Source of the DNA: Actinomycetota bacterium
GTDB taxonomy: Bacteria; Actinomycetota; Thermoleophilia; Solirubrobacterales; 70-9
Assembly: GCA_018268675.1 (NCBI GenBank)
Contig: JAFDWB010000084.1
Span: 248,001 to 312,000 of the forward strand
Direction: 5' to 3'
Length of the DNA: 64,000 nt
The position numbers were made by a program, and so were the translations under genes. Below the pieces are notes generated by a model. That model made no database searches. It was given only the letters and a program-made list of their open reading frames with translations, and was not told the DNA's origin. Below, one piece after another: positions 26,153 to 59,027 of the stretch. Position 1 is the stretch's first letter; every line of letters begins with the position of its first letter.

Positions 26153-26205
26153 CCGGTGAGTTCGCACTTATCTACAACTGTTGTGGCCAACTGCGAACTC
26201 ACCGG
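26153..26205. repeat. hairpin 2 with a nested dyad in its loop
   Basis: CCGGTGAGTTCGCA (26153-26166) pairs exactly with TGCGAACTCACCGG (26192-26205). The 25-nt loop itself contains ACAACTGTTGT, a small dyad. It lies between convergent genes and may be a two-way terminator, but the nested form is unusual. Confidence 0.6.
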
Positions 26206-32554: not shown

Positions 32555-32851
32555 GTGGCGGGAGTGGAGCCGAGGTGGTGGTCGATGCGGGCGGCGCAGA
32601 ATCTGAAGCCCGCCACCTACCGGTGTCCTTTCTGTGGGAAGCACCTCGCCTCGATGTCGGAGCACGTGTTGATCGCGCCGGAGGACGACCGCTCGAAGCG
32701 CCGCCACGCGCACATGGAGTGCGTGCAGCAGGCACGGGCGGCGGGGAGGCTGCCGACGCGGGACGAGTGGCTCGCGGCCGAGCGCGGGCCGCGACCGTCG
32801 CTCGGCGCACGCTTGCGCGCGCGTCTCGGGGGTAGGAAGCTCGACACATGA
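32555..32851 (+). CDS. small zinc-ribbon-like protein (98 aa), unknown function
   Basis: One CxxC (CPFCGKHL at about 24-31) followed by SEHVLIAPEDD, HAHMEC and a basic C-terminus. The Cys pair plus His/Cys of HMEC could form a zinc site. I recognise no named family. GTG start. The stop overlaps the next gene (ATGA), so it is cotranslated with a secreted protein, and it follows the FtsH-like gene by 24 bp. Confidence 0.65.
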   Translation: MAGVEPRWWSMRAAQNLKPATYRCPFCGKHLASMSEHVLIAPEDDRSKRRHAHMECVQQARAAGRLPTRDEWLAAERGPRPSLGARLRARLGGRKLDT

Positions 32852-33291
32852 CACGACTCCGCCTGCTCCTCCCACTCGCCCTTGTCCTCTGCGCCCTCGC
32901 CGCCGCGCTCGCCGCCTCGGCCGGCGCCGCCGCCAACCCGGTCCTCGGATCGAAGGCCTTCGCGGCGCCCTACGGCAAAGGCTTCGGCACCGCCGAACCC
33001 ACCGAAATCTTCAACGGCGGCGACCCCAGCGGCCTGGTCACCAAGATCAAGTGGACCGGCTGGGGCAACCCGAGCGCGATCGGCTACGGCCTCAACCCGA
33101 TCTTCAAACCGCACGGCGGCTACTACCCCAAGCCGGCCCGGATCGAGCTCCGCGCCACGAAGCTCGGCCACTGCGGGTCCACCGCCGCCTACACCCGGCT
33201 CGAAGCCCGCGTCCCGAAGCGCCCCGGCGGCAAGCTCGGCAAGTGGTTTTCCTGGGCGGGGGCGAAGACGTTGTGCAAGGCGGGGTTCTAG
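32848..33291 (+). CDS. secreted protein of unknown function (147 aa)
   Basis: Signal peptide of about 28 residues (LLLPLALVLCALAAALAASAGA), then a small beta-rich mature part with GKGFGTAEPTEIFNGGDPSG, KIKWTGWGN and ARIELRATKLGHCGS. Two Cys could form a disulfide. The pattern KIKWTGWG...A-G-G resembles small exported proteins of unknown role in actinobacteria. Coupled to the zinc-ribbon gene. Confidence 0.7.
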   Translation: MTRLRLLLPLALVLCALAAALAASAGAAANPVLGSKAFAAPYGKGFGTAEPTEIFNGGDPSGLVTKIKWTGWGNPSAIGYGLNPIFKPHGGYYPKPARIELRATKLGHCGSTAAYTRLEARVPKRPGGKLGKWFSWAGAKTLCKAGF

Positions 33292-33325
33292 TTCGAGTTC
33301 GAGGCCGGGGCGGCCGTCCGAGGTG

Positions 33326-33383
33326 GTCACGGGCGCCTCATGGGGGTCCTGGCAGGCTGTGACCCCCATGAGGCGCCCGTGAC
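33326..33383. repeat. hairpin H1, 23-bp perfect stem
   Basis: Arms 33326-33348 and 33361-33383 are exact reverse complements. The left arm begins GTCACGGGCGCCTCATGG. The loop is 12 nt. Confidence 0.8.
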
Positions 33384-33403
33384 GTGAGGGGTGCGTGGGG
33401 AAG

Positions 33404-33454
33404 AGGGCACGGGATCGTGACGAAGATGCCGGGGACGTCACACTTCCGTGCCCT
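33404..33454. repeat. hairpin H2
   Basis: AGGGCACGG (33404-33412) pairs with CCGTGCCCT (33446-33454). Inside it GTGAC (33417-33421) pairs with GTCAC (33437-33441). Confidence 0.5.
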
Positions 33455-33483
33455 TTCAAGGCCGAGATCGAGGCCCCGGAGCT

Positions 33484-33529
33484 CGCTGCAGCGACAGGTG
33501 TCGTCCCGGCGACACCTGTCGCTGCAGCG
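33484..33529. repeat. hairpin H3, 20-bp perfect stem
   Basis: CGCTGCAGCGACAGGTGTCG (33484-33503) is repeated inverted at 33510-33529 with a 6-nt loop TCCCGG. It is the most stable-looking structure in the window. Confidence 0.8.
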
Positions 33530-33569
33530 CGTATCGGACGCCTGAAGAAGGCGGGAGGAAGGGTGACGG

Positions 33570-33660
33570 ACCTCCCTTTCCCCGGCCGACCCCCGTCAGC
33601 TGTTCTTTTTGCCGGACTGGTCGGCATAAGGAACAGCTGGAGGGAGAGACGTCCTGGAGG
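33570..33660. repeat. dispersed hairpin repeat, copy A
   Basis: Begins ACCTCCCTTTCCCC and ends CGTCCTGGAGG. The central stem is CAGCTGTTC (33597-33605) with GAACAGCTG (33631-33639) and an inner TGCCG/CGGCA. It aligns over about 90 bp with copy B at 58935-59024, including flanks outside the stem. Confidence 0.7.
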
Positions 33661-33681
33661 CGACGGCGAGGTACCACTTCG

Positions 33682-33708
33682 GTGACGGTCCCGTGGCGCT
33701 CCCGTCAC
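33682..33708. repeat. hairpin H5
   Basis: GTGACGG (33682-33688) pairs with CCGTCAC (33702-33708), loop 13 nt. Confidence 0.4.
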
Positions 33709-33742
33709 ACCCTCGCGACCCTTCCCCTCTCCCCGCACCCTC

Positions 33743-33792
33743 GGCCGTCTCGGCCACTGCCACAGCCTGCCCGGGCCGTGGACGAGACGGCC
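33743..33792. repeat. hairpin H6
   Basis: GGCCGTCTC (33743-33751) pairs with GAGACGGCC (33784-33792). An inner CCAC/GTGG extends the stem with a bulge. Confidence 0.5.
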
Positions 33793-33825
33793 GCGTCCCT
33801 TGACCTTCGGGCGCCAGCTTCCCCC

Positions 33826-34212
33826 CTACCGCGCCGCGATCACCCGGTCCGCCCAGCGCCGCGCGCGAGTTGGGACGAGGCGACCGAGTGGGCCGCGGTG
33901 GTCGGCGACCCAGCGGTAGGCGTGTTCGGTCGCCCGGGGCGTGCGGGCGAGGAGCGCGGCGGGGCGCCGACCGCGCGGTAGGAGGGCGAGCGCCGGGGCG
34001 AGGGCGGCGCCGGCGCTGGTGCGGACGCCGGTGTCGTCGACCAGGTGCCAGGAGGCGTTCCGCTGCTCGGGCGTGAGGTCGGCGAGGAGACGATCGGCCT
34101 CCGGCGTCCCGAGCGGCAGCAGGCGCAGCGCCCCGCGACGGTCGCCCCGCAGGAGCACCGCGAGGCACCAGCGGCAGAGGCCGCATTCGTCGTCGTAGAT
34201 GACCGTCGCCAC
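33826..34212 (-). CDS. DCC-family thiol-disulfide oxidoreductase-like protein (DUF393)
   Basis: 128 aa. The YDDECGLC motif near the N-terminus (C10-x2-C13) is the DCC signature, a thioredoxin-like CxxC in a small fold. The region LLPLGTPEADRLLADLTPEQ and the C-terminal Arg-rich segment match family layout. Redox partner and role are not known. The GTG start at 34212 is used. It is divergent from the MFS exporter and lies 98 bp away. Confidence 0.85.
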   Translation of the reverse strand: MATVIYDDECGLCRWCLAVLLRGDRRGALRLLPLGTPEADRLLADLTPEQRNASWHLVDDTGVRTSAGAALAPALALLPRGRRPAALLARTPRATEHAYRWVADHRGPLGRLVPTRARRWADRVIAAR

Positions 34213-58184: not shown

Positions 58185-58233
58185 GTTGATGGGCCGAAAA
58201 CCTCTCTATTTCAGCGGTTTTCGGCCCATCAAC
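58185..58233. terminator. 18-bp perfect hairpin at the end of the unknown 145-aa gene
   Basis: GTTGATGGGCCGAAAACC (58185-58202) pairs exactly with 58216-58233, loop 13 nt. The right arm covers the stop codon of the gene at 58229-58666. No T-run, so a rho-independent terminator is not certain. Confidence 0.55.
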
Positions 58234-58666: not shown

Positions 58667-59027
58667 CCCCGCCTTCCTTTCCTTCGTCGAAGCCACCGCC
58701 CGACGGCGGTGCGCGGGCAAGCATAGGTACGAAGGCGGACCGGGCGCGGTTCGGTCATGTCGGCGGCACGAAACGCCGCGCCGCCAGATCACCGCGGTGA
58801 GCGCGGCGACGCGCTGGAATATCTCGGCGAGCCATCCGATCGCCCCCTTCGAGACCCGTAGTGCTGCGCCGCCGCAGTGACGATCGGCGCAAAGGCGAGC
58901 CAGAGGATCTACCTCGCCGCGAGGAACTGGGACGACCTCCCTTCTCTCCAACCCGACCCCCTCCAGCTGTTCCTTATGGCCGATATACCGGCATAAGGAA
59001 CAGCTGGACGGGAAGCGCCTCCTGGGG
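58667..59027. other. 361-bp gap with dispersed repeat copy B, no credible gene
   Basis: The reading frames here are shadows. The right third is the hairpin repeat at 58935-59024, ending four bases before the aminotransferase stop codon. The left part shows nothing I can interpret. Confidence 0.5.
58935..59024. repeat. dispersed hairpin repeat, copy B
   Basis: ACCTCCCTTCTCTCC... to ...CTCCTGGGG, aligned over its length with 33570-33660. The stem CCAGCTGTTCCTTATG (58963-58978) pairs exactly with CATAAGGAACAGCTGG (58992-59007), 16 bp. Confidence 0.7.

What the first reader, a model, noticed from the sequence alone, without database searches (positions are those of the whole stretch)
33292..33825. 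A convergent intergenic gap built from six successive hairpins
Stems of 23, 9+5, 20, 9+5, 7 and 9+ bp follow one another across 467 bp between two converging genes. Two of them are perfect over 20 bp or more. Simple termination would need one. The array could be a structured RNA, a recombination or insertion hot spot (folded single strands, as with attC-like sites), or a barrier element.
Basis: seen in the sequence. Interest (0 to 1): 0.65.

Follow-up and report, generated by a model that had tools for sequence, protein, structure and literature searches.

The report
Mobile six-hairpin repeat between convergent genes
The six hairpins are one copy of a roughly 530-base non-coding DNA repeat found at about 70 places in this actinobacterial genome, mostly just past the ends of genes, which appears to spread without carrying any gene of its own.

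Summary
In detail: perfect 23-bp and 20-bp stems plus four weaker ones lie at 33326-33793, and both strands fold far better than shuffled sequence (z about -8.8). It is not a one-off. The array is one copy of a dispersed, apparently undescribed repeat of about 530 bp. The loop motif of its end hairpins occurs 98 times in this genome (about 72 places), against once for a reversed control. Relatives occur in 6 of 11 other genomes of the genus, only the larger ones. The window site is empty in five sister species with the same convergent gene pair, so this copy was inserted. Of 150 copies none lies in a gene; 58% lie between convergent genes (16% expected), 3% between divergent ones (34% expected), with no orientation preference. 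The end hairpins are conserved across species; the middle is a mosaic. Stems covary between species without excess of G-U over A-C, so the constraint looks like DNA palindromes, not one RNA strand. Best reading: a non-autonomous mobile palindromic repeat that works like PATEs or REP/BIME elements, but no Y1 transposase or TnpB exists in the genus assemblies, and no IS110 or reverse transcriptase in this genome. The mobiliser is unknown.

The parts
33295..33814 (+). Element core (one copy of the dispersed repeat), model positions 3-523
   Evidence: nhmmer with a profile of 17 copies, E 8e-164; repeats
33310..33322 (+). Left-end block GCGGCCGTCCGAG, its first nine bases shared in inverted form with the right end
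   Evidence: alignments of copies
33326..33383 (+). Hairpin 1 (left terminal palindrome), 23-bp perfect stem
33348..33361 (+). Loop motif CCTGGCAGGCTGTG of hairpin 1
   Evidence: 98 matches of the motif in the genome, 1 for the control
33404..33454 (+). Hairpin 2, imperfect; differs between subfamilies
33484..33529 (+). Hairpin 3, 20-bp perfect stem; a different palindrome in other species, absent in some copies
33545..33572 (+). Conserved block between hairpins 3 and 4 (ending GGAGGAAGGGTGACGGACC)
33592..33644 (+). Hairpin 4 (AGCTGTTC...GAACAGCT); optional module that also occurs alone elsewhere
33682..33707 (+). Hairpin 5, 7-bp stem, weak
   Evidence: sequence
33742..33793 (+). Hairpin 6 (right terminal palindrome)
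33761..33774 (-). Loop motif of hairpin 6, inverted copy of the hairpin 1 loop (CCGGGCAGGCTGTG)
33786..33794 (+). Right-end block GACGGCCGC, inverted copy of the left-end block
32848..33291 (+). Left flanking gene, 147 aa hypothetical protein; conserved in sister species
33826..34212 (-). Right flanking gene, 128 aa; conserved in sister species; converges on the element
58916..59026 (+). Partial copy: only the interior module around hairpin 4 (17-bp perfect stem at 58962-59008)
   Evidence: nhmmer E 2.6e-18, model 259-369

Best explanation
The array is one copy of a non-autonomous mobile DNA element, a mosaic palindromic repeat of about 0.5-0.7 kb so far seen in one genus of Solirubrobacterales MAGs. 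Its ends are two large palindromes (hairpins 1 and 6) whose loops and neighbouring blocks are inverted copies of each other; an enzyme supplied in trans most likely recognises them. The middle is cargo in which smaller palindromes are gained, lost and swapped. New copies settle next to gene 3' ends, most often between convergent genes, and are tolerated there. Shown: dispersal, presence here but not in five sister species, conserved ends, mosaic middle, position bias, covarying stems, no coding capacity. Inferred: that the terminal hairpins are the mobilisation signal and that the stems are kept as DNA palindromes. Unknown: the mobilising enzyme and the exact end points.
For: Copies: ten near-complete matches at 88-100% identity and many partial or diverged ones in the own genome; the end-loop motif occurs 98 times (46 + / 52 -), 1 in the control, with 25 correctly inverted pairs 230-560 bp apart, about 72 places. 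Insertion: same gene pair with overlapping ends or at most 64 bp between them, and no element, in five sister species. Mosaic: interiors are deleted, swapped or enlarged between conserved ends. Position: 0 of 150 copies in a gene; convergent 38, tandem 25, divergent 2 of 65 against 10.4, 32.4 and 22.2 expected from intergenic bases (p 9e-15 convergent, 1e-9 divergent). Stems: 96.1% of cells paired, 101 cells changed on both sides against 32.7 in shuffles, 0 of 500; end stems have species-specific versions. G-U against A-C events 30 to 23. Range: 7 of 12 genomes of the genus, all 3.4 Mb or more, the five without it 2.4-2.9 Mb; 49 other genomes of family and order give at most two 25-bp matches that look like chance.
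Against: No mobilising enzyme was identified: no Y1 transposase or TnpB in the genus, no IS110 or reverse transcriptase in this genome; the few DDE genes do not track the element. No target-site duplication could be defined because the outermost bases vary between copies. Some copies lack one end. The closest two of 17 full copies compared are 93.6% identical, so present-day activity is not shown. Loss in five sister species instead of one gain is formally possible.
Confidence: 0.78

Rival explanations
1. A functional bidirectional terminator, insulator or nucleoid/gyrase-binding element that is selected at convergent gene ends (domesticated, BIME-like). It could hold together with a mobile origin.
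For: Strong convergent bias and avoidance of divergent gaps; no orientation preference; stems kept by paired changes.
Against: Five sister species keep the same gene pair without it; five genomes of the genus have none; interior hairpins are dispensable; the same position bias is reported for ordinary REPs (PMC3733652) and can follow from 3'-end targeting or from insertion being tolerated there.
Confidence: 0.25
2. A large structured non-coding RNA, amplified in the genome, that acts as RNA.
For: Both strands fold with z near -8.8; covariation in hairpins 1 and 3; long-range pairing in the consensus fold.
Against: No Rfam family at a curated threshold; strand-symmetric mismatches, 30 G-U to 23 A-C events; hairpin 1 pairs that switched between A-T and G-C or C-G and T-A show almost no wobble intermediates; no orientation preference in tandem gaps; variable interior.
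Confidence: 0.1
3. Relics of an IS200/IS605-type or REP/RAYT system whose transposase has since been lost from all sampled genomes. This is a variant of the best explanation, not its opposite.
For: Near-terminal palindromes and a transposase-free middle, as in PATEs (PMC3119063); REP-like 3'-end distribution.
Against: No Y1 transposase in 12 genomes of the genus, though the family seems to have been amplified separately in several of them, with species-specific ends.
Confidence: 0.3
4. Chance: a G+C-rich intergenic stretch that happens to fold.
For: The genome is G+C-rich.
Against: 0 of 100 shuffles fold as well on either strand; the array recurs genome-wide.
Confidence: 0.01

Closest known systems
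PATEs (palindrome-associated transposable elements) of Haloquadratum walsbyi (PMC3119063)
   Same: Non-coding, near-terminal palindromes, heterogeneous interiors, invaded by smaller mobile repeats, no transposase gene inside, ragged outer ends.
   Different: PATE end palindromes resemble those of IS605-type transposons of haloarchaea, and PATEs lack terminal inverted repeats; here no Y1 transposase was found in the genus, and the end blocks and loops are inverted copies of each other.
REP/BIME/REPIN elements (PMC3733652, PMC2817692, PMC3116915)
   Same: High-copy palindromes, intergenic, mostly between convergent or same-direction genes close to gene 3' ends, mosaic arrays of hairpin modules.
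   Different: REPs are 20-40 bp, tagged GTAG or CGTC in the large superfamilies, and linked to RAYT transposases; this unit is about 530 bp with ordered parts and conserved ends, and no RAYT was found.
ERIC/IRU, Correia/NEMIS and other bacterial MITE-like repeats (PMC2229807)
   Same: Short non-autonomous repeats with inverted termini that fold.
   Different: Smaller (127 bp for ERIC/RU-1) and from other phyla; not directly compared by sequence here. The element has no match in phage or plasmid records.

Membership tests
PATE | Palindromes near both ends | tested here: met
   hairpins 1 and 6 at the ends of the full copies in several species
PATE | Too short to encode a transposase | tested here: met
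   25 end pairs are 230-560 bp apart
PATE | End palindromes related to an IS605-type transposon / Y1 transposase available | tested here: not met
   no PF01797 in 12 genomes of the genus
PATE | No terminal inverted repeats, no target duplication | tested here: inconclusive
   end blocks and loops are inverted copies; end points not defined
REP/BIME with RAYT | Palindromic unit of 20-40 bp | tested here: not met
   unit is about 530 bp with two conserved ends
REP/BIME with RAYT | GTAG or CGTC tag next to the palindrome | not tested
   no systematic scan for tags was made
REP/BIME with RAYT | Intergenic, convergent or same-direction gaps, near 3' ends | tested here: met
   published pattern
REP/BIME with RAYT | RAYT (Y1) transposase gene in the genome | tested here: not met
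MITE | Terminal inverted repeats related to a known transposon, target duplication | tested here: inconclusive
   inverted end blocks present; no parent transposon seen between end motifs; duplication not resolvable
Integron attC | GTTRRRY core sites flanking an imperfect hairpin, next to an integrase | tested here: not met
   no GTTRRRY or RYYYAAC in 33292-33825 (read); integrase not searched
Group II intron (ORF-less) | Match to a curated intron model; reverse transcriptase in the genome | tested here: not met
   no intron model among Rfam matches up to E 1; no RVT_1 in this genome
Known structured RNA | Score above the curated threshold of an Rfam family | tested here: not met

The most novel reading that the evidence does not exclude
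A new class of gene-free mobile DNA whose mobility depends on two large hairpins with mutually complementary loops, moved by an enzyme outside the known Y1/RAYT, IS110, TnpB-associated and retro systems, and whose palindromes are kept perfect by arm-to-arm correction at the DNA level.
Probability: 0.2. Interest if true: 0.75.

Novelty: new variant of a known kind. Interest (0 to 1): 0.5.

Why it matters
It is a high-copy palindromic mobile repeat family in a lineage (Solirubrobacterales MAGs) for which my limited literature searches found none described, and it lacks the transposase normally held responsible for such repeats. It offers about 70 natural replicates per genome to test whether hairpin loops serve as transposition ends, why such repeats avoid promoters and gather at convergent gene ends, and whether long palindromes are corrected arm against arm. 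It also explains part of the fragmentation of these assemblies, since many contigs end inside a copy.

Tried and rejected
Rfam at a permissive threshold: only chance-level matches to single hairpins, mostly microRNA models. IS200/605 or RAYT mobilisation by a resident enzyme: no PF01797 in the genus. Retro-mobility: no reverse transcriptase in this genome. IS110 and TnpB: absent here. Integrase-core (rve) and DDE_Tnp_1 genes are few and do not follow the element. Viral contigs, phages, plasmids: no match. Concerted evolution at shared sites: some gaps are occupied both in this genome and in SZAS-9, but at different distances from the genes and sometimes in opposite orientation, so separate insertions are likelier; not settled. 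An autonomous copy with a gene between the two ends was looked for in the end-motif positions and not seen; copies cut by contig ends could hide one. Papers: no description of such repeats in this group was found.

Full report
What is there. The gap 33292-33825 between the + gene 32848-33291 and the - gene 33826-34212 contains six successive inverted repeats. Two are perfect (23 bp with a 12-nt loop, 20 bp with a 6-nt loop). Both strands fold about 8.8 standard deviations better than shuffled sequence.

It is a repeat family. Searching the window's own assembly (4.2 Mb, 95 contigs) with the gap gives ten near-complete matches at 88-100% identity and many more that are diverged or partial, on both strands, a good number of them cut off at contig ends. 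A 14-base motif from the loops of the two end hairpins, CCKGGCRGGCTGTG, occurs 98 times in the genome and once when the pattern is read backwards; 25 pairs face each other 230-560 bp apart, giving about 72 places (pairs counted by me from the list). Among 61 genomes searched the element occurs in 7 of 12 of the genus, this one included; outside it the only matches are two 25-bp stretches that look like chance. All seven bearers are 3.4 Mb or larger, the five without are 2.9 Mb or smaller. Named members include the MAGs SZAS-9, SZAS-15, RYN_247 and Solirubrobacterales 70-9. Viral contigs, phage and plasmid records have no match.

It was inserted here. In five sister species the same two genes lie side by side, convergent, with overlapping ends or at most 64 bp between them, and without the element. 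One gain in this lineage is simpler than five losses.

Anatomy. Copies that reach both ends carry hairpin 1 on the left and hairpin 6 on the right, and these ends are what is conserved between species, while the middle changes: two copies lack most of it, others lack hairpin 3 or carry an added palindrome GAGTTCGCA...TGCGAACTC. Other copies are cut short at one end. Hairpin 4 also exists as a free-standing repeat in the bearing genomes, including an interior fragment at window 58916-59026. At the place of hairpin 3, other species carry a palindrome of unrelated sequence. The two ends mirror one another: block GCGGCCGTC, loop CCTGGCAGGCTGTG and a G-rich block follow in the same order when the right end is read on the other strand. 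The loop change T to G at the third base is found in both ends in RYN_247. This mirror order fits recognition of both ends by one protein; it would also allow loop-loop pairing, and the data do not separate the two.

DNA or RNA. On 25 copies, 96.1% of stem cells pair, and 101 cells carry changes on both sides against 32.7 +/- 4.2 in shuffles, 0 of 500. Related copies inflate this measure, but sliding the partners by 1-3 columns drops it to 11-23. Hairpin 1 has eight pairs changed on both sides. If the stems were kept as RNA of one strand, G-U should outnumber A-C (its image on the other strand); distinct events are 30 and 23, p 0.41. In 79 copies the A-T/G-C and C-G/T-A switches at pairs 8 and 12 of hairpin 1 show no wobble intermediate. 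I infer that palindromy is kept at the DNA level, by selection for the ends or by one arm templating the other; the data do not choose between these.

Where copies sit. Of 65 with both neighbours in reach, 38 lie between convergent, 25 between same-direction (13 and 12 by orientation) and 2 between divergent genes. From intergenic bases in the same loci 10.4, 32.4 and 22.2 are expected. The element therefore either targets gene 3' ends or survives only there. Published REP repeats show the same preference (PMC3733652).

Mechanism and rivals. I think it most likely (0.78) that this is a non-autonomous mobile palindromic repeat whose end hairpins are the signals for an enzyme acting in trans. 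It works like PATEs, which have near-terminal palindromes, heterogeneous interiors and smaller repeats inserted in them (PMC3119063). It is not filed as a PATE or a REP, because the Y1 transposase that both are tied to is missing from all 12 genomes of the genus. IS110, TnpB and reverse transcriptase are missing from this genome too, and the few DDE genes do not follow the element. The mobiliser may have been lost, may lie in an assembly gap, or may be of another kind. A terminator or barrier effect of individual copies remains possible alongside.

Limits. The genomes are fragmented MAGs and the repeats break the assemblies, so copy numbers are lower bounds. The outer ends vary between copies, so no target duplication could be tested. 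The nearest two of 17 full copies compared differ by 6.4%, so movement today is not shown. The background for gap classes comes partly from loci chosen because they hold a copy. No expression data were available.

Noticed in passing
window 58916-59026: A partial copy of the element: only the interior module with hairpin 4 (perfect 17-bp stem), in a gap between two - strand genes.
   Followed up: partly
window 58185-58233: Another perfect 18-bp stem with a 13-nt loop (GTTGATGGGCCGAAAACC...GGTTTTCGGCCCATCAAC) in a gap between two - strand genes; not matched by the element profile.
   Followed up: no
window 26158-26200; also L036, L043, L044 (inside the element) and the left flank of L038: A separate small palindromic repeat GAGTTCGC...GCGAACTC, found alone in intergenic gaps and inserted inside some copies of the large element.
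   Followed up: partly
L037 2021-2084: In this copy the loop of hairpin 1 is inverted relative to its stem (TCACAGCCTGCCAGGA instead of TCCTGGCAGGCTGTGA), as if the loop had flipped by recombination between the arms.
   Followed up: no
genomes G000, G003, G005-G008, G011 against G001, G002, G004, G009, G010: Element-bearing members of the genus have genomes of 3.4-4.7 Mb, element-free ones 2.4-2.9 Mb; possibly two clades, or a link with genome expansion.
   Followed up: no
L034/L104 and L056/L120: The same intergenic gap holds a copy in this genome and in SZAS-9, but in opposite orientation.
   Followed up: partly
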